A stretch of DNA of 58,068 nt from a virus. The notes below the pieces were generated by a model that worked only from the letters and a program-made list of their open reading frames with translations, made no database searches and was not told the origin of the DNA. The stretch lies in the IMG/VR virus record IMGVR_UViG_3300023176_002408, positions 1 through 58,068 of that record, one strand, 5' to 3'. Below, piece after piece: positions 1-36,515 of the stretch (positions within the stretch are counted from its first letter, which is position 1; each line of letters begins with the position of its first letter). The position numbers were made by a program, and so were the translations under genes.

Positions 1-338
1 TTGAATGTAGCACCAGTATCGTTGATATCATCTACAATAAGAATTTTCTTTTCTAGTGGACCACCTGTAACACGGTCTTCTTCTTTTTCACGATATCCAA
101 AGGCATCTTCTGCCATCCAAAAGTTGCTTTCACTTTCTCTGTTATCATCACGCAGGCTTACCTTAAGTGCTTCGCAACGAATGCCTGTCATGTTACTAAT
201 AATAGTAGCAGGTACATTACCGCCTCGTGTAATACCTACAATGTAATCAGGCTTCCAATTATCATAATACATTTGTAAAACAATGTTATTACACATACGT
301 TCTACATCTGCCCAACTGTAATATTTCTTTTTAATCAT
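1..338 (-). CDS. Purine-type phosphoribosyltransferase, N-terminal part (cut by window edge)
   Basis: Only the first 112 codons are present; the gene runs off the left edge. The type I PRTase PRPP-binding loop ILIVDDINDTGATF is at residues 99-112, and an RGG loop at 38-40 follows a beta strand (YIVGITRGG), as in xanthine/hypoxanthine-guanine phosphoribosyltransferases. Such enzymes join a free purine to PRPP to make the nucleotide. The ATG (336-338) overlaps the stop of the upstream oxygenase gene as ATGA, so translation is probably coupled. Family assignment is secure; base specificity is not. Purine salvage, or supply of an unusual base to the neighbouring transglycosylase island, are both inferences. 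Confidence 0.85.
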   Translation of the reverse strand, partial: MIKKKYYSWADVERMCNNIVLQMYYDNWKPDYIVGITRGGNVPATIISNMTGIRCEALKVSLRDDNRESESNFWMAEDAFGYREKEEDRVTGGPLEKKILIVDDINDTGATF

Positions 339-1982: not shown

Positions 1983-2349
1983 CATCTTTCCTACTGTTAT
2001 AATCATCCTTACACAAGTTATATATTTCTAAAAACTTTTCATACTGTAGTTTTAGGGCAGGGTATAACTTAATCATATCTTCGATCTTATATTCTGCCGG
2101 CCAATTATCGCCATACTCTCCAAGTGTTATACTAGATGGAAAATCACCAGTATCAAAAGTTGTATCAAAACTTGTGTCAACATTAACAGTATAAGTGCCA
2201 TCGCTTTGTACGTAACTTGTATCTATTGGATATGTAGTTGAATCCATTGTTGAATACGATGTAATTCCGCCTACAGTTGCACCTGGGCCTGTATAATCGA
2301 TATTAGTATTATCTAGTGTAATAGTAAATTTCTTTTCATCATCGTCCAT
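1966..2349 (-). CDS. Uncharacterised phage protein
   Basis: A 127-aa acidic protein. The N-terminal two thirds are rich in T, S, D, G and Y, suggesting beta structure (many short TYTVNVD-like stretches). The C-terminus is helical and charged (about 85-127), ending in a lysine/aspartate-rich tail. No recognised domain, signal peptide or membrane segment. It overlaps the glycosyltransferase gene upstream by 11 bases and the cupin-like gene downstream, so it belongs to the same operon. I do not recognise the family. Confidence 0.6.
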   Translation of the reverse strand: MDDDEKKFTITLDNTNIDYTGPGATVGGITSYSTMDSTTYPIDTSYVQSDGTYTVNVDTSFDTTFDTGDFPSSITLGEYGDNWPAEYKIEDMIKLYPALKLQYEKFLEIYNLCKDDYNSRKDDDVPF

Positions 2350-3406
2350 TATTAATCACCTTGTAAAGTGCTTGACCTGAAAAGAAGTCTTCTTTTAATT
2401 TTGTAACTTGTTTAAGTAACACTGGAAGATAATTGTCATAGTTTTCCATGTAATCAGTAATTCTGTCAACTAAGACTCTTCTATATTTCTTGTAAGCAAA
2501 GAAGTCTTCTGTCCATTCGCTTGGATACTTAAATTCATCTAATCCCATTTCGCTATAACTTAAACGATCCGGAACCATCGGAATAGCATTAACTAGTGCG
2601 CCTTCATACCAACTAATACCAAGTGTTTCTTGTAAGTTAGCACTAAACACTAGTTTTGCTTTACCTAGTAGGTTATGATACTCATTCTTTGTTAACGATT
2701 GTTCTTGACAAATAATAAGTTCATAGTTAGGTAAATGTTCTTTTAAGTCTCTAAATATTTCTGGTTGTTTCTCTGGAGCAACTCTATGCGGAAACAGAAT
2801 AATATTTTCTTTAGGCATACCTTTGTAAGAGTCTAAACTATTTTTTAGATACTCCATAGGCCATCCTACACGATGAAATTCTGTTTTATAATCGCCATAT
2901 GCATATGGCTTCAATTGGAATGCTTTTTTAAACATTTCAATATGGAATTCTGTAGCAAAGAAGTTATCATGATAACATTCTAGCATACTTTGTTCTGCAA
3001 GACGTACCCAAGGTTTATCACCAATTAGTCTGCCCAAGAAATCTTGTGGGTCATAACTACCAGCGTGCCAGAGGCCACCAACGCGAATATTAACACCAAG
3101 TAACTCTGCCATGTAACGTAGTTGTATAACTGTAGGATTCCAGGCATCGGTATAGAGAAAATAATCACCGTCCTTAATTTTACCATTGCAGAACATCTCT
3201 CCAATTTGTTCTAGTTGTTTACTCTTGTAAACATTAGTACCGCCAAAGTTAAGAAATGCCCCAGGCGTAGTAGCCTGAGGCGTCTCTCCTCCACTGATAA
3301 CAGTGACTTCGCTATTAGTAGCACGTTGTAACTGCTTAGGAAGATGTTCCTTCCACTGCTTAGTATAACGTGTATCTACTGCTTCGATGTCAACTATATA
3401 AATCAA
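2339..3406 (-). CDS. Glycosyltransferase, GT-B fold (GT4-like)
   Basis: A 355-aa protein of normal length for a single GT-B glycosyltransferase. The C-terminal half has the typical order: ENIILFPHRVAPEKQ (start of the donor-binding domain), then YELIICQEQ, then KLVFSANLQETLGISWYEGA, where the E...EG motif contacts the nucleotide sugar in GT4 enzymes. It would transfer a sugar from a nucleotide donor to an unknown acceptor: modified DNA bases, lipopolysaccharide or a virion protein. The stop codon overlaps the next gene; the ATG overlaps the previous stop as ATGA. The adjacent oxygenases and TGT-like gene make DNA decoration a reasonable but unproven idea. Confidence 0.75.
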   Translation of the reverse strand: MIYIVDIEAVDTRYTKQWKEHLPKQLQRATNSEVTVISGGETPQATTPGAFLNFGGTNVYKSKQLEQIGEMFCNGKIKDGDYFLYTDAWNPTVIQLRYMAELLGVNIRVGGLWHAGSYDPQDFLGRLIGDKPWVRLAEQSMLECYHDNFFATEFHIEMFKKAFQLKPYAYGDYKTEFHRVGWPMEYLKNSLDSYKGMPKENIILFPHRVAPEKQPEIFRDLKEHLPNYELIICQEQSLTKNEYHNLLGKAKLVFSANLQETLGISWYEGALVNAIPMVPDRLSYSEMGLDEFKYPSEWTEDFFAYKKYRRVLVDRITDYMENYDNYLPVLLKQVTKLKEDFFSGQALYKVINNGR

Positions 3407-3609
3407 TGAAACTTCCTTTTATTAAATTTTCGCTTTGGCTTTCGCGAAATTTTTGAAGGATCTAAATAACTTTGGTAAGTGCGAGACTTTTTATTATAAA
3501 GATCTGCTTCGTTAAAAATAAACCCGTTGAAACGGCAAAAGTCACGATAACTATCTAAGTCATCGAAAATTTGAACCACGTCAGGGCGTTTATCCCAATA
3601 CTTGCTCAT
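3403..3609 (-). CDS. Small basic conserved phage protein
   Basis: The longest frame begins at 3729 inside the preceding gene, but the ATG at 3607-3609 is placed 13 bases after that gene's stop and has AGGAAG upstream. The product is 68 aa. The N-terminal half (WDKRPDVVQIFDDLDSYRDF) is acidic and aromatic; the C-terminal 20 residues are strongly basic (KPKRKFNKRK), suggesting nucleic-acid binding. No known domain recognised. The stop overlaps the glycosyltransferase start as ATGA. Confidence 0.65.
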   Translation of the reverse strand: MSKYWDKRPDVVQIFDDLDSYRDFCRFNGFIFNEADLYNKKSRTYQSYLDPSKISRKPKRKFNKRKFH

Positions 3610-3622
3610 TTTAATGCTTCCT

Positions 3623-4078
3623 TTAGTTTCTAGCATATTCAATGTGGGCACCGTTCTCTCCATCTTCGGAGACATCGATGTGGACTTCACGTCCAGGGTG
3701 TTTAGCACGGATTTGTTCATACAAATCATCTGCCATCATTTCACAACTCTTATAATCTAGTTCAAGGGTTTTCTCCTCATAAAGTTTTTCTAACCATCTT
3801 TTGAATTGAATAAATTCGATATCTCTGTCGTTGTGTGTAACTGAGATAGCGACTTTGAAATGGAATATGTGTCTGTGGGGATATCCCAAAAACGAAACAT
3901 CATATTCATCACCTGTTGCAAGACTAGGATCATCTAGTGCCGCAGGATACTTGTGGATTCCTTCCTTTCGGAATGTTACCCAAATCATTCTCTTTGCGTT
4001 TTCCATAATTGCCTTTTCGTTATCCTCTCTCATCATTCTCAACATATAATTGTGATAAGATTCTCTTACTGTTTCCAT
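3623..4078 (-). CDS. QueD / 6-pyruvoyl-tetrahydropterin synthase-like protein
   Basis: Weak but ordered similarity to the T-fold PTPS/QueD family: H42 (GIHKYP), H68-x-H70 (PHRHIFHF, matching the family HGH zinc motif), IEFIQFKRWLEKLY (equivalent to the family V-DF-LK helix), CEMMADDLY (family TAENLA), and a final SEDGENGAHIEY strand like the family ETPT-AEY end. The catalytic Cys normally between the first His and HGH is absent. QueD makes carboxy-tetrahydropterin on the 7-deazaguanine pathway. Start uncertain: a strong promoter places its transcription start inside codon 2, so translation from M25 (4006, AAGG five bases upstream) is possible. Function unproven. Confidence 0.5.
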   Translation of the reverse strand: METVRESYHNYMLRMMREDNEKAIMENAKRMIWVTFRKEGIHKYPAALDDPSLATGDEYDVSFLGYPHRHIFHFKVAISVTHNDRDIEFIQFKRWLEKLYEEKTLELDYKSCEMMADDLYEQIRAKHPGREVHIDVSEDGENGAHIEYARN

Positions 4079-4080
4079 TT

Positions 4081-4109
4081 ATTATAACTTCTTTCTTAGT
4101 CATTGTCAA
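4081..4109 (-). promoter_or_regulatory. Sigma-70-like early promoter before the QueD-like gene
   Basis: On the minus strand TTGACA (4104-4109), 17 bases, TATAAT (4081-4086): both hexamers are perfect consensus. It lies in the 3' end of the preceding gene. The -10 box ends only 2 bases before the annotated ATG, so this promoter cannot serve that ATG. Confidence 0.75.
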
Positions 4110-4635
4110 CCGGATTATCGTTTTCATATTTGGACCAATCTGTAAATTTTGAACGGTCTTGTAAATCGTGTACCTGATGAATCCAAACACCGGCATTAGT
4201 TGCTTTAAAATCTTTGTCGTCAATTTTGATACACGCATTATAATTAAGTTGATCAATGTAAGGAATTTTTACACTAATCTGACTAATAAAGTTTGTTTTT
4301 TCGTTGTAACCGCTTTCTAACACCCACTCATGATATTTTACATCATAATCAAGTGTTACATGATATCCTTCTTTAAGCAAACCGTAAATTAGTGTATCCC
4401 AAGCCTTGTTAGTTTCTTCTTCACCATTTGGTAAAACTATTTCAAAACTTTGATTAGCACCCAAGTAAATATGGTCTACGTGCTTTGCTTTTGCTTGTTC
4501 TAATACTTCATCTAACGGACGACATCCAACTACAAATAGTGTATCCATATCGTATGCTGGTGTTTTCTCTACTTCATATCCAGTAAAATAAACAACATCA
4601 TCTTTTACAATGCCGTCTGAGTAATCACGTTTCAT
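4096..4635 (-). CDS. Uncharacterised conserved phage protein
   Basis: A 179-aa acidic soluble protein. It starts with an aromatic/acidic segment (VVYFTGYEVEKTPAY, residues 14-28), followed by an alternating beta-alpha region (TLFVVGCRPLDEVLEQAKAK; HIYLGAN), which suggests a small alpha/beta fold. No catalytic motif is identified, and there is no CxxxCxxC motif, so it is not QueE. It starts in an ATGA overlap with the DUF465 gene upstream. A possible promoter at 4716-4744 could transcribe it. Its place between a QueD-like and a TGT-like gene hints at a shared pathway, but nothing in the sequence fixes the role. Confidence 0.6.
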   Translation of the reverse strand: MKRDYSDGIVKDDVVYFTGYEVEKTPAYDMDTLFVVGCRPLDEVLEQAKAKHVDHIYLGANQSFEIVLPNGEEETNKAWDTLIYGLLKEGYHVTLDYDVKYHEWVLESGYNEKTNFISQISVKIPYIDQLNYNACIKIDDKDFKATNAGVWIHQVHDLQDRSKFTDWSKYENDNPVDND

Positions 4636-4793
4636 GATTGTAATCTCTCAATTTCCTGTTTAACTATTAATTTCTCTTGTTTCATTTTCTTAAGTGCCGC
4701 ATCATCTATATAATTACTATAACCTCTTTGGATCTCTTTGTCAAGTGTTTTATGCTTGATTATTAGTGCTTCCAATCTGTTTTCTTTAGTCAT
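4632..4793 (-). CDS. DUF465/YdcH-like small coiled-coil protein
   Basis: A 53-aa frame. The pattern is that of DUF465 (YdcH): a first helix ending in IIKHKTLDKEI, a short loop with DD, and a second helix rich in K and E (LKKMKQEKLIVKQEIERL). The ATG (4791-4793) has a GGAGAG purine run upstream; the stop overlaps the next start (ATGA). DUF465 proteins form helical hairpins of unknown function. A second member lies at 5418-5606. Confidence 0.7.
   Translation of the reverse strand: MTKENRLEALIIKHKTLDKEIQRGYSNYIDDAALKKMKQEKLIVKQEIERLQS
4716..4744 (-). promoter_or_regulatory. Possible early promoter inside the DUF465 gene
   Basis: TTGACA (4739-4744), 17 bases, TATAGT (4716-4721) on the minus strand. 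It lies in coding sequence, so it may be chance, but the spacing matches the other early promoters of this window. Confidence 0.35.
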
Positions 4794-4804
4794 ATGCTCT
4801 CCTT

Positions 4805-4833
4805 AATATAACATTATAGTGTGTCGTTGTCAA
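4805..4833 (-). promoter_or_regulatory. Sigma-70-like early promoter before the DUF465 gene
   Basis: TTGACA (4828-4833), 17 bases, TATATT (4805-4810). It overlaps the last codons of the oxygenase gene at 4814 and precedes the ribosome-binding site and ATG at 4793. Confidence 0.6.
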
Positions 4834-5404
4834 GTCCAAATCCTTCAATATCGCCATTAAATGCAATACTAATCCTATCTTTCTTGCTCCAATTTTCTTT
4901 AACTTGATGATTAATCCAACCTGGGAAAGAAACTAATTTACCAGTTTGTGGAATAACTGTAAATCTACAACCGTTATAAGAATTGGCCGCTTGAATTAGT
5001 TTAGGTGGTAGAGCATAGTCTACGATATTAGATGGGGGGAATAAAACTAAATCTCCGCAGTTTTGTTCGGCTTGTGGATAGTATACACAGGCTACGAAGT
5101 GTTTAGGGTGTAGATGTGTTTCTACAATGTTTGATGTTTGTTCTAAAGGCTTTTGTACATTTAGCCAAGCCTGTGTGGGTTTAATTTCATACCCATCAAC
5201 CAAGTTCCACAGTTGTGTGAGCATTTTAAAATGTTCTCTTACCGCTTCTACTAGCGGTTGAAGAACAGGCTCGGCTAAATTTAAATGATTACTTTGACCT
5301 CTGTGCTTAACATTCTTGTATGCAAACTTAATAAGTTCGTCATTGTTAATGTCGCTAAGGTGCTCGTCTGAGAACGGAGTAGTAAACAAGTCAACTATTG
5401 CCAT
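4814..5404 (-). CDS. 2OG-Fe(II) oxygenase (2OG-FeII_Oxy_5 type)
   Basis: A 196-aa single-domain oxygenase. The first motif THLHPKHF (about 96-103) followed by VACVYYP gives the histidine and strand pattern of the family; the distal motif is GKLVSFPGWINHQV (about 155-168), with the later R of DRISIAFN as 2-oxoglutarate ligand. The substrate is unknown. The same motif architecture recurs in the genes at 335, 13951 and 34605, which suggests a phage-expanded family. The ATG follows GGAGAT at a good distance. Confidence 0.8.
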   Translation of the reverse strand: MAIVDLFTTPFSDEHLSDINNDELIKFAYKNVKHRGQSNHLNLAEPVLQPLVEAVREHFKMLTQLWNLVDGYEIKPTQAWLNVQKPLEQTSNIVETHLHPKHFVACVYYPQAEQNCGDLVLFPPSNIVDYALPPKLIQAANSYNGCRFTVIPQTGKLVSFPGWINHQVKENWSKKDRISIAFNGDIEGFGLDNDTL

Positions 5405-5417
5405 TCTCTGATCTCCT

Positions 5418-5606
5418 TTAAATTTTATTTTTAAATTTTAAAATAGCATCTTTTAGTGCTAGTTTGATTTTCTTATGCCTTTGCAAAAGTTCTTTTGAAG
5501 TCCATGAACGATCTCCGTCACGTTCCTGTTCCATCTCTGTAACTTTTTTATCGTAATATTGATGCTCTTCTTCTAAACGTTTTAGTTGCTTATTAGATTT
5601 GCTCAT
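5418..5606 (-). CDS. DUF465/YdcH-like small coiled-coil protein (second copy)
   Basis: 62 aa, two charged helices with the DUF465 pattern: EEEHQYYDKKV, a loop containing DGD, and LLQRHKKIKLALKDAIL ending in basic residues. It is divergent from the copy at 4632-4793 but has the same hairpin layout. It starts inside the end of the TGT-like gene (overlap of 14 bases). Confidence 0.65.
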   Translation of the reverse strand: MSKSNKQLKRLEEEHQYYDKKVTEMEQERDGDRSWTSKELLQRHKKIKLALKDAILKFKNKI

Positions 5607-7137
5607 CTTCTAACTCCTCGAGTTTATGTTCTTGTTCTTCAGTAAATTCACTGTCACTTGAGTCATCTGAAGTTGTTGTGTCTGCTTCTTCAAATAAATT
5701 AGCAAACTGTGTACTAGCATTAACTGTCTTTTTACCAGTAGCACCTCTAGTGCCAATAACTGACATCCAGAATCTTGAAAATTCTTCTATGACCGCATTC
5801 GCTTCGTCTCTGTTGTCAGTTGCAAATATCGCTTCCACAACATCTCTAAAAAATAACCTGTCAAAACGTTCTTCGACAAGCATCGCTGGAATTCTGCCTG
5901 CGTCATATTCTCTGTTTGCTTCTTGTACTGCATTAATGTGACTCCATACATTATGACCCATTTGGATCGCATATGAAAAACTATCCCAAGATGTTTTTCC
6001 TTCTTTACCTACTTTATTTAGATCGCCTGGTGCATAGATACAAACATCTTTGGCTGTTAGTCCTGTTGTAATAGGCGAGTCTTTAAAACTTCCGTGTTTG
6101 TTTTCACGTACAAATGCTTGACCAAACGGTGTAAGGTCTTGTGCTAAACCTTTGTCGTCAATGCTAGGTACCATTCTGTATACCCATTTACTTCTATCTT
6201 TTGTTTCAAGTTCACAATAGATTTGACCATTTGCTGTTGCTAAGAATGGACTAGCACAGTCAAATGTAATTGTAAAGTTTTCGTTATGATGTTTACGAAC
6301 TGCTCTTTGTACATCAGTTAGTAGTGTTGCCCACTCTAGTTTACTTGTACCCAAGAAGTGCATAAAGTCATGTTTGCCTTTTTCAAGTAATCCATCAAAA
6401 CGTAGTGCAACAATACGTTTTAATGCTAGGTGAATATCACACATATTCTGACCACCCATTGACCACCCATTAAAGTGATCAGTATACTTTTTAGGATCGC
6501 AATAGTCTTTCATTTGCTGATACCAATCTTCTGCATCAGCATGATTCTCACCTTGTAGTACATTTAAGAATTTACAATTACCATTACGATTTTTCATAAA
6601 GTAATCGTTATTAATACGTGTGGCATTTACTGCTTCTTGGTATGTACTAATACCAGTTGCTTTAACACCTTGTGGACTACGAGCAACCCAAGCCGGAATA
6701 TCAAGGATCATACCGTAATCCATATATTCGTCCATCCAACGTAAAACTTGTTCACGTTTCTTTTTCGCCTTAGGACAGTTAGGATCTTTCCAATCACCTT
6801 CCCATACACCTTTACCAATCTGGAATCCTCCAGAGTCGCCAAGCAACCAACTAGTATTGCGATCTCTGTTTCGGATCATATCTTCTTTAGGTGAGTCTTT
6901 GTTAATATCTAATTCAGCGTGACCTGCGGAATACAATGACCAATTATATTGAAACATACCGTCATTGCGATTTAACCAGTTCAGACTTTCAACGTCATTA
7001 GGAAAGTTACTAGGAATTCTAGTTCTTTCAACATATTCTTCACGACGCTGTTTACCAATGAATGTAGCATAGAAGCCACTAATCGCTGGTAGGAAGATTG
7101 CGTAATCCTTTTGCTGTGCTGTTAAGTCCGTATTCAA
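5593..7137 (-). CDS. DpdA/TGT-like transglycosylase (queuine tRNA-ribosyltransferase superfamily)
   Basis: 514 aa. TGT-superfamily signatures occur in order (numbering from the chosen start): LLGDSGGFQIGKG (about 98-110, base-binding Asp), MILDIPAW (about 143-150), NGWSMGGQ (about 223-230, like TGT GGLSVGE), HFLGTSKLEW (about 261-270) and TFDCASPF (about 291-298, matching the nucleophile FDC-LP). The CxCxxC...H zinc site of bacterial TGT is not seen. It resembles DpdA, which inserts 7-deazaguanine into DNA, more than tRNA TGT. The C-terminus is acidic. No ATG exists near the start: TTG at 7135-7137, six bases after GGAG, is the likely initiator. Confidence 0.8.
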   Translation of the reverse strand: MNTDLTAQQKDYAIFLPAISGFYATFIGKQRREEYVERTRIPSNFPNDVESLNWLNRNDGMFQYNWSLYSAGHAELDINKDSPKEDMIRNRDRNTSWLLGDSGGFQIGKGVWEGDWKDPNCPKAKKKREQVLRWMDEYMDYGMILDIPAWVARSPQGVKATGISTYQEAVNATRINNDYFMKNRNGNCKFLNVLQGENHADAEDWYQQMKDYCDPKKYTDHFNGWSMGGQNMCDIHLALKRIVALRFDGLLEKGKHDFMHFLGTSKLEWATLLTDVQRAVRKHHNENFTITFDCASPFLATANGQIYCELETKDRSKWVYRMVPSIDDKGLAQDLTPFGQAFVRENKHGSFKDSPITTGLTAKDVCIYAPGDLNKVGKEGKTSWDSFSYAIQMGHNVWSHINAVQEANREYDAGRIPAMLVEERFDRLFFRDVVEAIFATDNRDEANAVIEEFSRFWMSVIGTRGATGKKTVNASTQFANLFEEADTTTSDDSSDSEFTEEQEHKLEELEDEQI

Positions 7138-7138
7138 A

Positions 7139-7330
7139 TTATTCTCCAAATGCCTTAAATGCTAAGAGAGGAACAAGCCAAGGATAAACCAAATGCTCAA
7201 CCAACTCATATACAACCAAAATAGTGAGCAACACGGCCCATAGTTTTGATGTTTTTGCTTTGTTGCTAACATATTCAAATATCCTCGAATGCCACTTTCC
7301 TAAACGTTCTATTATACCTGGTTTCGGCAT
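7139..7330 (-). CDS. Small single-span membrane protein
   Basis: 63 aa. The ATG at 7328-7330 has AAGGAG upstream and is preferred over the longer frame that intrudes into the sliding clamp gene. An amphipathic basic N-terminus (about 1-28) precedes a hydrophobic segment LWAVLLTILVVYELVEHLVY (about 29-48) and a hydrophobic tail. Function unknown. Its stop lies 2 bases from the TTG start of the transglycosylase, so the two are probably co-translated. Confidence 0.6.
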   Translation of the reverse strand: MPKPGIIERLGKWHSRIFEYVSNKAKTSKLWAVLLTILVVYELVEHLVYPWLVPLLAFKAFGE

Positions 7331-7337
7331 AAACTCC

Positions 7338-8069
7338 TTACTTAGATTGTGCTGGAAGAATATAATCGTACTCAACCATTCCACTATCTACTGTGATTTG
7401 CATAGCACCTTGATCTGAAATCTTCATGTTTAATTTACCATCAAGATTTAGAATTGCTTGTACTTGTGCTACAGGCCATGCCCAAGTGTGTTGTAATGCA
7501 CCAGTTACACCTGTTTGGAAATTAAACTTACCAGCGTGTGTACTGTGATCACCAAAACTAAACACTAGGTTATCACCGTTAGTTGAAACATTAAAAGTTG
7601 GCTCTTCTGAATGCGCCGCACTTTGTAGTTTCATTCTATTAATACTTGCAACAGTTGGCTCAAACTCTACTTCCCAACTTGCACCTTTAAACTTAACACT
7701 CTTTAGTTTTTCTTCAATGATTTGTTTGTTCATAAAACGATAATCATTTTGGAAGTCACCTGCTTCGTTTTCAAAGTGAATGTGTGTTGGAACAGTTTCG
7801 CCATTACGTTCTGCTTTCTCTACAGAAAGTTTTGCGTTCTTTTGATACTCAGGATTCTTTAAGTGTAGTGCTAACTTGTCTAAGTTAGGCATACCAAAAG
7901 TACCATTGAACTCGCCTACGGAATTCTTTGCTTTTGCAGTTAAGATAACACTTCTATCTTCTGCCATACTTTCGATTGTTGTTGATTGATCATCGCCACT
8001 TACTTTAACTAGATTAAGAAAACCTAGTGAATGTGTGTGTGCGACAACGTCTTGTAAAATGTCTTTCAT
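7338..8069 (-). CDS. 45: DNA polymerase sliding clamp (gp45 type)
   Basis: 243 aa, close to the length of T4 gp45. The protein is a run of beta strands with the gp45 pattern: LGFLNLVKV near the N-terminus, TAKAKNSVGEF, a central region with NKQIIEEKL and SWEVEFEPT, and the C-terminal GMVEYDYILPAQ. It forms the trimeric ring that tethers gp43 to DNA and activates late transcription in T4. It has its own strong early promoter. The clamp loader gp44 is at 32902 and gp43 at 10087, and the polymerase carries a C-terminal LFDF clamp-binding peptide. Confidence 0.85.
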   Translation of the reverse strand: MKDILQDVVAHTHSLGFLNLVKVSGDDQSTTIESMAEDRSVILTAKAKNSVGEFNGTFGMPNLDKLALHLKNPEYQKNAKLSVEKAERNGETVPTHIHFENEAGDFQNDYRFMNKQIIEEKLKSVKFKGASWEVEFEPTVASINRMKLQSAAHSEEPTFNVSTNGDNLVFSFGDHSTHAGKFNFQTGVTGALQHTWAWPVAQVQAILNLDGKLNMKISDQGAMQITVDSGMVEYDYILPAQSK

Positions 8070-8839: not shown

Positions 8840-9225
8840 ACTAATTCCTCAGCAATGTATCTTTTTAATTCTTTGTCTTGCACATCTGTAGGTATTTCAT
8901 TTTTATAAAAAAGTCTATAACTGTCAGAACCGTACTTACCAATACCGTATAATTGTGTAGCATCTTCTCCATCCCAATCTTCAAATTGTTCGCTCATTCG
9001 ATACAGTCTTTCTGCTCGAACACGTTGCATACCTAACGGCTTTAGCACATCTTCAATTTCTTTTTTAGTAGCATATAGCAAACTACTATGTGTAGGCCAA
9101 CGTCTAAAGAACTCTGTAAGTACAGGTTTAGTTTGACGCCTGTTTACCTGATTAAGACATATAACGCCAACCATATGTTGCCATACATTGTCGACTTGCT
9201 GTTGAACCATTAGATCATCACGCAT
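8836..9225 (-). CDS. HhH-GPD DNA glycosylase, MBD4-like
   Basis: 129 aa from the ATG at 9223-9225 (a longer frame to 9285 overlaps the cupin more). The helix-hairpin-helix is LYGIGKYGSDSY (about 92-103), very like MBD4 and endonuclease III. The catalytic aspartate region VQDKELKRY (D117 likely) matches the MBD4 pattern with D-K-L-K-Y. The endonuclease III Lys nucleophile in the HhH and the C-terminal 4Fe-4S Cys cluster are absent, so a monofunctional mismatch (G:T or G:U) glycosylase is predicted. It overlaps the epimerase start by 4 bases and the cupin stop by 8. Confidence 0.7.
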   Translation of the reverse strand: MRDDLMVQQQVDNVWQHMVGVICLNQVNRRQTKPVLTEFFRRWPTHSSLLYATKKEIEDVLKPLGMQRVRAERLYRMSEQFEDWDGEDATQLYGIGKYGSDSYRLFYKNEIPTDVQDKELKRYIAEELV

Positions 9226-9547
9226 CGTATCTCTTTCCATCAAACACACAAACAAAGTATAATTCTTCATCACCTGCGTGTACACGATGAAATACTCCGT
9301 CTTGAATTAGTACTGTATCGCCTGGATAAACACTAAACGTTTCATCATCAAGTTGCATATTACCTGTACCTTCGATAAACAAGTAAACTTCTTCTTGACC
9401 TTCGTGTTTATGTCCTGTTGTACTTTTATTAGGTCTTAATCTAGTACTACTTACAATAAGATTTTTTAATCCTTTATTATCTTTTACAGTATAGCGGTCA
9501 TCTTGTTTAACAACTTCACCGCCTATATCCCAGTTACCGAATTTCAT
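9218..9547 (-). CDS. Cupin-domain protein (sugar isomerase-like)
   Basis: 109 aa, a single cupin. Motif 1 is GHKHEGQEEVYLFIEGTG (about 45-62) with two His and Glu ligands; motif 2 is PGDTVLIQDGVFHRVHAG (about 74-91) with the third His. Such small cupins include mannose-6-phosphate isomerase-like proteins and sugar-binding regulators. Neighbouring epimerase and glycosyltransferase genes suggest a role in sugar metabolism; this is inference. It overlaps the exonuclease stop by 4 bases. Confidence 0.75.
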   Translation of the reverse strand: MKFGNWDIGGEVVKQDDRYTVKDNKGLKNLIVSSTRLRPNKSTTGHKHEGQEEVYLFIEGTGNMQLDDETFSVYPGDTVLIQDGVFHRVHAGDEELYFVCVFDGKRYDA

Positions 9548-13925: not shown

Positions 13926-13954
13926 ATTATATATTCGTTTGTTCTTAATGTCAA
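13926..13954 (-). promoter_or_regulatory. Sigma-70-like early promoter of the DsbA operon
   Basis: TTGACA (13949-13954), 17 bases, TATAAT (13926-13931): perfect hexamers and spacing. It is followed by a 25-base leader with AGGAGA and the ATG at 13900. Confidence 0.8.
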
Positions 13955-14487
13955 GTCGCTTGTGGTCTTTCCATAGTCAAATTGCCACTAACAATAACTC
14001 GTTCAAAATCTGTTTCTTGAATTGGTACCATGTGTGTTACCCAACCAGGAAAAATAACAATAAGACCTGGTTCGGGTTGAATGGCTCTTTCAGCAGTTGG
14101 AAATACTAAAGGAGCACATTCTTCCGAAGCATCAACATAATAACAAAAACTCCAAAGTGCTGGATGATGGGCGTGTGGTAGGGTTTCACCTCCTCTTTTA
14201 TAAATTGCACCCCAGCAATCTGTTGCATAAAAATTTCCTTGTGGTACTGGATCTAATCCTTCTTCCAAAAGTTCTATAGCAAAGTCAATAATTTTTTTGA
14301 AATGCGGATTGTCATACATAGTCCAACGTGTCATATCCGCTTTGACATTTGTTTTATGGTATTGTTGATCACCTTGTTCCTTAATACAAGAAATAAGGTC
14401 TGCTTTGATAGATTCCTTTTCGTGGAACATACCAGTAAAAATATTCGCTCGTTCTTTAAACTCAAAAGTTTGAATATGTGGTACCAT
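13951..14487 (-). CDS. 2OG-Fe(II) oxygenase
   Basis: 178 aa. First motif LPHAHHPALWSFCYYVDA (about 103-120) with the histidine cluster; distal motif GLIVIFPGWVTHMVP (about 140-154) with His, and later R of ERVIVSGN. Same architecture as the gene at 4814. The substrate is unknown. A late-type octamer lies only 5 bases before the ATG and no ribosome-binding site is visible, so the mRNA may be leaderless and the protein made late. Confidence 0.8.
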   Translation of the reverse strand: MVPHIQTFEFKERANIFTGMFHEKESIKADLISCIKEQGDQQYHKTNVKADMTRWTMYDNPHFKKIIDFAIELLEEGLDPVPQGNFYATDCWGAIYKRGGETLPHAHHPALWSFCYYVDASEECAPLVFPTAERAIQPEPGLIVIFPGWVTHMVPIQETDFERVIVSGNLTMERPQAT

Positions 14488-35656: not shown

Positions 35657-36094
35657 TTATCTTGGTCTGTCTGCAAAGTCCTCAGGACGAGGACCACCGC
35701 TATTAAAGTCAGTATTAGTTCCGATTTGCAAATCTTCTGGCTCTTCTTCTTGCCAGGCTAATATTGCATTTACATCAATTAGTCTAACTTCAATTTCTCC
35801 CATATCGGGATCATCTAAAATGATACCACGTGACCAACGTCCGTGTTCAACATAGATCCAGTTACCCACAGCATAGGGGTCTTTATTTTCATGTCCGATA
35901 GCATAAATTTTACACCATCTTGGACGGATGCCTGCTTCTTGGCCGTCATCACTTGCGATAATAATACCACCTTTAGTAGTACGTTCTCCAAAGTTCATGT
36001 CATAAGCAAGTACGCCATCATGTATCGGTCTAAGTTTGCCAGTTGCCCTAGTTTTTAACTTAGGACCGGCTCCTAACATCTGCGTATCCATCAT
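35657..36094 (-). CDS. GroES-like co-chaperonin (gp31 type)
   Basis: 145 aa. The GroES pattern is visible: LRPIHDGVLAYDM (GroES I-RPLHDRV), TTKGGIIIASDDG (mobile-loop GGI-L), KIYAIGHENKDPYAVGNWIYVEHG (GroES G-V-AVG ... VK-GD-V) and ILDD ... VNAILAW. T4 gp31 replaces GroES in folding the major head protein. An acidic tail (about 115-145) is extra. I infer gp31 function from fold-level similarity; the call has moderate certainty. Confidence 0.65.
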   Translation of the reverse strand: MMDTQMLGAGPKLKTRATGKLRPIHDGVLAYDMNFGERTTKGGIIIASDDGQEAGIRPRWCKIYAIGHENKDPYAVGNWIYVEHGRWSRGIILDDPDMGEIEVRLIDVNAILAWQEEEPEDLQIGTNTDFNSGGPRPEDFADRPR

Positions 36095-36098
36095 TTAA

Positions 36099-36515
36099 CT
36101 ATTCACCTTTCTTTACAAAGTTACCAGCATCGTCTTCAACCCACTCTGTACCAGTTTCTTCAGCCTCGGCATCAATATCTGCCATTTCTGCTTCTACTGA
36201 ATTTGCAGGCGCTTCTTTCTTAACTGCTTCTACTTTAGGAGTAGGAGCCGCCGCTGGTGTTGATGTTGGAGTTGCTGTTTCTTTGCGAGGTGACTCATCT
36301 GGAACTGCTTGTGGATGATCTCTATAATATTCGTCTAGAATATCATCACGACGCCTAATAATTTTACCACCTGGGCCTAATTCATCGCCACGTGCATTTA
36401 CACGAGCATTTCCAACCGCAGGAGTAAGTTCATTTTTTTGACGTAGTAAGTCCATGTCAACTTGCTTACCTTGCATTGACTTATAAACTTTACGTCCAGT
36501 TTGTTTCATCGCCAT
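36099..36515 (-). CDS. Conserved phage protein with disordered tail
   Basis: 138 aa. The N-terminal 65 residues are conserved-looking and basic (TGRKVYKSMQGKQVDMDLLR; NELTPAVGNARVNARGDELG), then a Pro/Ala/Thr-rich and Lys/Glu-rich linker (TPTSTPAAAPTPK), and an acidic end (EETGTEWVEDDAG). I recall related virion-linked proteins of marine T4-like phages. Late octamer at 36541 and AAGGAG before the ATG. No enzyme motif. Confidence 0.6.
   Translation of the reverse strand: MAMKQTGRKVYKSMQGKQVDMDLLRQKNELTPAVGNARVNARGDELGPGGKIIRRRDDILDEYYRDHPQAVPDESPRKETATPTSTPAAAPTPKVEAVKKEAPANSVEAEMADIDAEAEETGTEWVEDDAGNFVKKGE

What the first reader, a model, noticed from the sequence alone, without database searches (positions are those of the whole stretch)
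3623..7137. DpdA/TGT-like transglycosylase with a QueD-like neighbour: candidate DNA-base modification island
The 514-aa protein at 5593 has the TGT superfamily motifs in order (DSGGFQ, NGWSMGGQ, FDCASP). It lacks the tRNA-TGT zinc site that I would expect, which is like DpdA, the enzyme that inserts 7-deazaguanine into phage DNA. Within 7 kb lie a QueD-like T-fold protein, a glycosyltransferase, two cupin/oxygenase genes and a phosphoribosyltransferase. Known: DpdA works with QueD/QueE/QueC products. Inference: this phage modifies guanine in its own DNA, possibly with further oxidation or glycosylation. QueE, QueC and FolE are not in this window, so host preQ0 may be used.
Basis: partly seen in the sequence, partly recalled or inferred. 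Interest (0 to 1): 0.78.

Follow-up and report, generated by a model that had tools for sequence, protein, structure and literature searches.

The report
Phage cassette for sugar-tagged deazaguanine DNA
This uncultured phage carries an enzyme that probably swaps guanine in its own DNA for a guanine look-alike, plus a partner enzyme that probably hangs a sugar on it, a combination that recurs in unrelated phages and would be a new kind of DNA disguise against bacterial defences.

Summary
The 514-aa protein at 5593-7137(-) has the TGT fold (AlphaFold pTM 0.82; VIA Z 20.0), the three catalytic aspartates and no TGT zinc motif; by profile it is closest to the DpdA2 of Acidovorax phage ACP17. DNA modification is well supported, but details change. 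The 'QueD-like' neighbour is not QueD: metal and base-binding residues stay, catalytic residues are lost. Missing genes lie just outside the window on contigs at least 99.9% identical to it: FolE and QueE about 3.5 and 4.3 kb beyond the left end, QueD about 3.2 kb beyond the right. No QueC was found, so the route should end at 7-carboxy- or 7-deazaguanine, not preQ0. New is a two-gene cassette, QueD paralogue plus GT-B glycosyltransferase. It accompanies this DpdA type in 55 of 55 well-covered loci and DpdA2 in 29 of 29; a third DpdA type has the paralogue in 25 of 25 and the glycosyltransferase in 0 of 25. Most likely product: a glycosylated 7-deazaguanine in phage DNA. The association is shown; activity, sugar and linkage are inferred. 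New variant of a known kind.

The parts
5593..7137 (-). DpdA-like guanine transglycosylase, 514 aa (TTG start)
   Evidence: TGT fold pTM 0.82, VIA Z 20.0; catalytic Asp 49 of 49; hhalign 6.5e-7 to ACP17 DpdA2
3623..4078 (-). QueD paralogue without QueD catalytic residues (DpdL-like by recall), 151 aa
   Evidence: phrog_17812 8e-36; hhalign to QueD 6e-7; three His and two Glu invariant, Leu at the catalytic Cys position, 27 of 27
2339..3406 (-). GT-B glycosyltransferase, GT4-like, 355 aa
   Evidence: homologous (1e-29) to X1 protein with PF00534 45.5 bits; E-x7-E, R208, K213 conserved; downstream of the QueD paralogue in 197 of 197 IMG/VR loci with both
4096..4635 (-). conserved protein of unknown function, 179 aa, between DpdA and the QueD paralogue
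   Evidence: in 78 of 80 and 72 of 80 window-type loci; 13 of 13 phage records with it also hold the cassette
3..338 (-). phosphoribosyltransferase, cut by the contig end; possible salvage of released guanine
   Evidence: PF00156 44.3 bits; a phosphoribosyltransferase family is in 24 of 29 DpdA2 and 52 of 55 window-type loci

Best explanation
A phage DNA-hypermodification cassette. Phage FolE, QueD and QueE turn GTP into 7-carboxy-7-deazaguanine (CDG). The QueD paralogue, still shaped to hold a metal and a guanine-like ring, converts CDG, most likely by removing the carboxyl to give 7-deazaguanine. The DpdA-like enzyme exchanges guanine in replicated phage DNA for that base through a covalent Asp293 intermediate. 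The glycosyltransferase then adds a sugar to the inserted base, as T4 glucosyltransferases do to hydroxymethylcytosine. The phosphoribosyltransferase may recycle the released guanine. Shown: genes, predicted fold, catalytic residues, no QueC found, association of the cassette across phage lineages and DpdA types. Inferred: DNA rather than tRNA as substrate, decarboxylation, and the deazaguanine as sugar acceptor. My separate estimates: DNA-directed DpdA-type exchange 0.88; CDG-derived base rather than preQ0 0.78; sugar on that base 0.55.
For: TGT fold and catalytic Asp. FolE and QueE beyond the left end and QueD beyond the right end on contigs 99.9-99.97% identical over the overlap. QueC over cut-off in 0 of 20 related records; QueC-profile hits in 0 of 109 well-covered loci. 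Isolates chosen for the paralogue: full-length QueC in 0 of 10, against 4 of 4 QueC-bearing controls, which have no paralogue. Paralogue plus glycosyltransferase in 55 of 55 window-type and 29 of 29 DpdA2 loci; glycosyltransferase in 0 of 25 DNSGFE-type loci. Clustering of 4,272 ORFs: only these two families are in all 29 and all 55. In IMG/VR the glycosyltransferase lies downstream of the paralogue in 197 of 197 loci, median start-to-start 388 to 722 bases. ACP17's relative Ps15 has QueC (passages) where ACP17 has the cassette. PF00303, which includes hydroxymethylpyrimidine synthases (recalled), is absent in 13 of 16 glycosyltransferase-bearing records, 11 of the 16 being contigs that may be incomplete.
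Against: No nucleoside measurement. 7-deazaguanine has no hydroxyl to accept a sugar, so a C-link at C7, the amino group, or an ester on unreacted CDG would be needed. Vibrio phage 2.275.O carries the same DpdA type with QueC, QueF and FolE and no cassette, so the enzyme is not tied to the cassette. Loci within each set are related and often syntenic, hence not independent. Gene order is not fixed: in PA5oct, ACP17 and X1 the glycosyltransferase precedes the paralogue. The decarboxylase role rests on recall of a paper that I could not read. The window's own glycosyltransferase has no Pfam match. PA5oct, Phosso and one contig do have a PF00303 gene.
Confidence: 0.55

Rival explanations
1. The cassette makes plain 2'-deoxy-7-deazaguanosine in DNA; the glycosyltransferase decorates something else (another base, a protein, an envelope sugar) and merely travels with it.
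For: 7-deazaguanine has no obvious sugar acceptor; DNSGFE-type loci keep the QueD paralogue without the glycosyltransferase (25 of 25), so the paralogue suffices for some product.
Against: The glycosyltransferase is in all well-covered loci of two DpdA types and in none of the third, close to the paralogue in either order; no PF00303-type hydroxymethylase candidate in 13 of 16 records.
Confidence: 0.25
2. The transglycosylase acts on tRNA: the phage tunes host queuosine or adds a deazaguanine to its own or host tRNAs.
For: Best solved-structure matches are tRNA TGTs; phages with preQ0 genes but no DpdA are suggested to boost host queuosine (Hutinet 2019, section read).
Against: QueC over cut-off in 0 of 20 records, so no preQ1 route of the phage's own was found; zinc motif in 0 of 49; no PF01702 match; no tRNA genes in the window; clamp-like and DNA polymerase genes beside it.
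Confidence: 0.08
3. The QueD paralogue passes CDG on unchanged or activated, CDG is inserted into DNA, and the sugar is joined to its carboxyl group.
For: The pathway without QueC ends at CDG (PMC13329287, passages); a carboxyl is a chemically simple acceptor.
Against: DNSGFE-type loci keep the paralogue with no glycosyltransferase, and recalled work assigns such a protein decarboxylation.
Confidence: 0.12

Closest known systems
DpdA2 phage transglycosylases (Vibrio phage nt-1 YP_008125322; Hutinet 2019)
   Same: TGT superfamily; no CxCxxC motif in nt-1 either; encoded with FolE, QueD or QueE; profile alignment to the ACP17 member 6.5e-7
   Different: tblastn with ACP17 DpdA2 found 70 records (40 listed); the tally has no Sinorhizobium and its two Pseudomonas records are pf16, so Phosso and PA5oct-like phages are not reached; the window-type profile hits 0 of 5 DpdA2 records at E<=1; nt-1 and pf16 have QueC and not the cassette
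Pseudomonas phages PA5oct/Paride and Sinorhizobium phage Phosso
   Same: Homologues of the DpdA-like protein, QueD paralogue and glycosyltransferase, with a QueE-like gene (both) and FolE (Phosso)
   Different: In Phosso the DpdA gene lies about 170 kb from the cassette; in PA5oct the 4096-type gene is about 28 kb from DpdA
Acidovorax phage ACP17, Xanthomonas phage X1, Synechococcus phage BUCT-ZZ01
   Same: QueD paralogue plus glycosyltransferase with FolE, QueE and QueD
   Different: Their transglycosylase is of the DpdA2 type
T4-type DNA glucosyltransferases
   Same: Proposed role: sugar added to a modified base in DNA
   Different: Acceptor would be a deazapurine, not hydroxymethylcytosine; relationship of the sequences not tested

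Membership tests
tRNA-guanine transglycosylase (PF01702) | Pfam match above cut-off | tested here: not met
   No match in the window record or in hmmscan
tRNA-guanine transglycosylase (PF01702) | TIM-barrel TGT fold with catalytic Asp residues | tested here: met
   27 of 28 Foldseek hits at E<=0.001 are TGTs; Asp 49 of 49
tRNA-guanine transglycosylase (PF01702) | CxCxxC zinc motif | tested here: not met
   0 of 49; present in E. coli TGT at 302
tRNA-guanine transglycosylase (PF01702) | Acts on tRNA | not testable with these tools
   -
phage DpdA | TGT superfamily member encoded with 7-deazaguanine synthesis genes | tested here: met
   FolE, QueE, QueD on same-population contigs; FolE over cut-off in 17 of 20 records
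phage DpdA | Sequence membership in DpdA1 or DpdA2 | tested here: inconclusive
   hhalign 6.5e-7 to ACP17 and 2.6e-4 to pf16, but 0.06 to nt-1 and 0.047 to 9g, no better than the best of seven negative controls (0.04 to 0.95)
phage DpdA | Inserts a deazaguanine into DNA | not testable with these tools
   -
QueD (PF01242) | Pfam match | tested here: not met
   No Pfam family at E<=1 for 3623-4078
QueD (PF01242) | Metal-binding His and substrate Glu | tested here: met
   H42, H68, H70, E113, E138 in 27 of 27; H68, H70 and the Glu by profile alignment, H42 by motif only
QueD (PF01242) | Catalytic Cys and Asp-His pair | tested here: not met
   Leu64 in 27 of 27 at the Cys position; in the alignment Asp faces a Glu and His a gap; residue roles recalled
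DpdL (named from recall, Cui et al. 2023) | Decarboxylates CDG | not testable with these tools
   Paper not held
GT-B group 1/4 glycosyltransferase | PF00534-type domain | tested here: met
   Via homologues: X1 45.5 and BUCT 26.5 bits over cut-off; PA5oct and ACP17 below it, Phosso only 12.8 bits; window protein itself none
GT-B group 1/4 glycosyltransferase | E-x7-E motif and basic donor-binding residues | tested here: met
   E260 in 21 of 23 (Asp in 2); E268, R208, K213 in 23 of 23; motif roles recalled

The most novel reading that the evidence does not exclude
Hundreds of uncultured phages, and a few unrelated isolates, carry a mobile two-gene cassette that takes the place of QueC and turns guanine in DNA into a sugar-bearing 7-deazaguanine, plausibly C-glycosylated at position 7: a purine counterpart of T4's glucosylated cytosine and a class of DNA base not seen before.
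Probability: 0.42. Interest if true: 0.88.

Novelty: new variant of a known kind. Interest (0 to 1): 0.72.

Why it matters
Phage 7-deazaguanine modifications protect DNA from restriction (Hutinet 2019; abstract and three sections read), but the modifications found in that paper's table carry only small groups. A sugar on the deazaguanine would be a bulkier shield and a new target for defences that recognise modified DNA. The system is frequent in IMG/VR and present in phages that can be grown, so nucleoside mass spectrometry could settle it. In the records seen, PA5oct-like phages and ACP17 have the transglycosylase as 'hypothetical protein', and the Paride paper has no occurrence of 'deazaguanine' or 'DNA modification'.

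Tried and rejected
Rejected: QueD inside the window. A tblastn hit at 36195-36401 (1.6e-4) lies in a low-complexity ORF. Rejected: kinship with an enzyme of Campylobacter phage CP220; the window-type profile gives only 0.0086 there, within a possible scaffold protein. Rejected: an oxygenase as a general part; the 4814-5404 protein matches in 14 of 80 near loci, and no oxygenase family is in all loci (families were single-linkage clusters of blastp hits at 1e-7 between ORFs of 90 aa or more, so a diverged family could be split). Led nowhere: PDB sequence searches (nothing better than 0.069, for the glycosyltransferase profile); IMG/VR scan with PA5oct gp168 (no match). The 4096-4635 protein folds confidently (pLDDT 88.5) but has no clear match (Foldseek best 0.019; best Z 6.3, QueE at Z 5.9 over 127 residues; too low to mean anything). 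A regex for E-x7-E on partial ORFs was too strict to use, failing for 52 of 75 ORFs of the DpdA2 set; the aligned columns of 23 sequences were used instead.

Against my reading, also seen: Vibrio phage D479 has the QueD paralogue and also a partial QueC-family match over the cut-off (32.8 bits, model positions 133-201 of 210), about 100 kb away; X1 has a sub-threshold one; two more sub-threshold ones in the 20 IMG/VR records. Four phage records hold a partial glycosyltransferase relative and are not among the 25 paralogue records; the one looked at lies in an amino-sugar gene cluster. Of the 40 listed of 70 DpdA2 records, only the ACP17 pair, X1 and BUCT-ZZ01 are also among the 25 paralogue records. 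The profiles contain sequences of eight and five of the ten paralogue phages, so their hits there are partly by construction; Bakedbeans and D479 were not in the paralogue profile.

Literature: Cui et al. 2023 (10.1093/nar/gkad657) is not held; the names DpdL, DpdA3 and DpdA4 and the decarboxylase role are recalled, not read. Searches whose listings showed me no report of a glycosylated 7-deazaguanine in DNA: 22 of 22 listed; 20 of 275; 9 of 10; 7 of 8; 20 of 236; 15 of 56; titles and abstract starts only, open-licence papers only, so weak evidence of absence. Papers seen in passages: PMC12783734, PMC13282480, PMC10761892, PMC9025141, PMC13329287.
Full report
WHAT IS THERE. The window is an IMG/VR virus record of 58,068 bases, probably a fragment of a large tailed phage (inference); its DNA polymerase is closest to that of Sinorhizobium phage Phosso (50.8%). 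On the minus strand lie, in order of transcription, a clamp-like gene (7338-8069), a small ORF (7139-7384), the transglycosylase (5593-7137), another small ORF (5418-5606), a 2OG oxygenase (4814-5404), a conserved unknown (4096-4635), the QueD paralogue (3623-4078), a small ORF (3403-3729), a glycosyltransferase (2339-3406), three further genes, and a phosphoribosyltransferase cut by the left end (3-338).

THE TRANSGLYCOSYLASE. No Pfam, NCBIfam or PDB sequence match; PHROG matches 0.0096 at best. With 48 relatives AlphaFold gives pLDDT 84.4, pTM 0.82. 27 of 28 Foldseek hits at E<=0.001 are TGTs, best 1.4e-6; VIA gives Z 20.0, rmsd 4.2, 299 residues to Thermotoga TGT, residues 12-428. D101, D146 and D293 correspond by motif to E. 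coli TGT D89, D143 and D264 (D293 also by profile alignment) and are invariant in 49 of 49; the CxCxxC motif is in none of the 49, nor in phage 9g DpdA or nt-1 DpdA2. Profile alignment to single sequences: ACP17 DpdA2 6.5e-7, phi13:1 1.9e-4, pf16 DpdA2 2.6e-4, E. coli TGT 1.7e-3, X1 0.009, BUCT 0.025, 9g 0.047, RH 0.05, nt-1 0.06, Ahp1 0.074; seven unrelated controls 0.04 to 0.95, so the last four are no better than the best control. Superfamily membership is firm, from structure; the precise subfamily is not. Direct relatives among 50,697 phage records: 13 (11 PA5oct-like, Phosso, Vibrio 2.275.O).

THE PATHWAY. Contigs overlapping the window at 99.9% and 99.97% identity supply what the window lacks: FolE (227 aa; PF01227 131 bits) and QueE (297 aa; 38.5% to BUCT-ZZ01 QueE, 5e-61; Radical_SAM only sub-threshold) about 3.5 and 4.3 kb beyond the left end, and a QueD with PF01242 at 52 bits about 3.2 kb beyond the right end. 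In 20 related records FolE is over cut-off in 17, PTPS in 5, QueC in 0; records may be fragments. FolE-QueD-QueE yields CDG, and QueC would be needed for preQ0 (PMC13329287, passages).

THE QUED PARALOGUE. Profile alignment to QueD gives 6e-7 over 85 columns. In 27 of 27 sequences two paired His, a third His and two Glu are kept; the catalytic Cys position is Leu in all 27; in the alignment the catalytic Asp faces a Glu of the window protein and the following His a gap (roles of the QueD residues recalled). ACP17, BUCT-ZZ01, RHph_I1_18 and phi13:1 encode this protein near a separate gene annotated as QueD or its equivalent. Recall, not read: Cui et al. 2023 predicted a CDG decarboxylase, DpdL, for phages with 2'-deoxy-7-deazaguanosine.

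THE GLYCOSYLTRANSFERASE. 19 of 50,697 phage records match; the 15 that cover at least 80% are all among the 25 records with the QueD paralogue (Phosso, 11 PA5oct-like, ACP17 twice, X1). BUCT-ZZ01 has a more distant one (5e-8). The other four are partial. Homologues reach PF00534, and E-x7-E is kept in 21 of 23, with Asp for the first Glu in two.

THE ASSOCIATION TEST. I scanned IMG/VR with three transglycosylase types. Whole sets of 80 best loci each, many truncated (profiles, E<=1e-6): window-type near set, 65 both genes, 2 paralogue only, 13 neither; window-type far set, 58 both, 9 paralogue only, 1 glycosyltransferase only, 12 neither; DpdA2 set, 74 both, 1 glycosyltransferase only, 5 neither; DNSGFE-type set, 76 paralogue, 4 none, glycosyltransferase 0 of 80. 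QueC, by a profile of four phage QueC, 0 of 320. Restricting to at least 6 kb on both sides (109 of 320 loci): both genes in 55 of 55 window-type and 29 of 29 DpdA2; DNSGFE type 25 of 25 paralogue with 0 of 25 glycosyltransferase. Clustering all 4,272 ORFs of these 109 loci without prior labels, only the paralogue and the glycosyltransferase occur in all 29 DpdA2 and all 55 window-type loci; others high in the list are FolE (29 of 29, 40 of 55, 24 of 25 DNSGFE), QueE (29, 32, 23) and a phosphoribosyltransferase family (24, 52, 10). The glycosyltransferase lies downstream of the paralogue in 197 of 197 loci with both on the match strand, median start-to-start 722, 639 and 388 bases; some loci have genes in between. 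In isolates the order varies: paralogue first in Phosso and BUCT-ZZ01, glycosyltransferase first in PA5oct, ACP17 and X1. With a looser criterion, at least 5 kb beyond the transglycosylase, both are in 83 of 83 window-type loci. Caveats: the sets are the best-scoring 80, members are related, several are the window's own population, and the DpdA2 set is biased to relatives of BUCT-ZZ01; no QueC-bearing DpdA2 locus such as nt-1's entered it.

ISOLATES. Whole-record searches of 14 records, ten chosen because they hold the paralogue and four because they hold QueC: paralogue 10 of 10 versus 0 of 4; full-length QueC 0 of 10 versus 4 of 4 (D479 has a partial match over the cut-off); glycosyltransferase 5 of 10 (PA5oct, Phosso, ACP17, X1, BUCT-ZZ01) versus 0 of 4; QueD family 9 of 10 versus 4 of 4. 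Of the five without the glycosyltransferase four carry DNSGFE-type enzymes and phi13:1 a relative of that type. ACP17's distant relative Ps15 has FolE, QueC, QueE, QueD and a TGT-like gene (PMC9025141, passages), and no Stenotrophomonas phage is among the paralogue or glycosyltransferase records, so QueC and the cassette look like alternatives. Vibrio phage 2.275.O is the counter-case: window-type enzyme with QueC, QueF, FolE and a YhhQ-like transporter.

MECHANISM. See best explanation. The acceptor problem is the main weakness: 7-deazaguanine offers C7-H or N2. C7 of the pyrrole ring is electron-rich, so C-glycosylation is chemically conceivable (general chemistry, not a call). That no further gene family is in all loci suggests that the acceptor is made by the shared enzymes alone. 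PF00303 is absent from 13 of 16 glycosyltransferase-bearing records and present in PA5oct, Phosso and one contig.

THE UNKNOWN 4096-4635. Found in 13 phage records, all cassette phages, even where it is not adjacent (PA5oct, about 28 kb away), and in 78 and 72 of 80 window-type loci but 1 of 80 DpdA2 loci. Fold inconclusive.

VERDICT. A real, widespread module; DpdA-like chemistry very likely; sugar-bearing 7-deazaguanine is the boldest reading that the evidence allows and is testable in existing phages.

Noticed in passing
L109:13108-14301 and L110 near 11895: Window-type loci whose glycosyltransferase is nearest the BUCT-ZZ01 type (55 and 61% identity): the gene seems to be swapped within the cassette.
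   Followed up: partly
L089:9379-10722: BUCT-ZZ01 has a second glycosyltransferase-like gene (my reading of the sequence, not searched) between FolE and DpdA2.
   Followed up: no
L104:9245-10396: Vibrio phage Bakedbeans carries the QueD paralogue as the C-terminal part of a 383-aa protein with an unknown N-terminal part.
   Followed up: no
L103:7669-10903: Xanthomonas phage PhiXhv-12 has a distant glycosyltransferase relative beside genes annotated as an aminotransferase and a deacetylase of amino sugars, with no gene annotated as que nearby.
   Followed up: no
window:22841-26437 and 35657-36094: ClpB-like AAA+ protein, DnaJ-like protein and a weak Cpn10 match: a phage chaperone set.
   Followed up: no
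window:335-1504, 4814-5404, 13951-14487, 1491-2006, 9218-9547: Several 2OG oxygenases and cupin-type proteins; 335-1504 has two oxygenase-like parts.
   Followed up: partly
window:43099-44733: Subtilase-family protease.
   Followed up: no
L102:8265-11274: Pseudomonas phage pf16 has two genes annotated GTP cyclohydrolase flanking DpdA2.
   Followed up: no
L268-L347: All 25 well-covered DNSGFE-type loci share one further family not seen in the other sets; it looks like a dCTP deaminase by recall.
   Followed up: no
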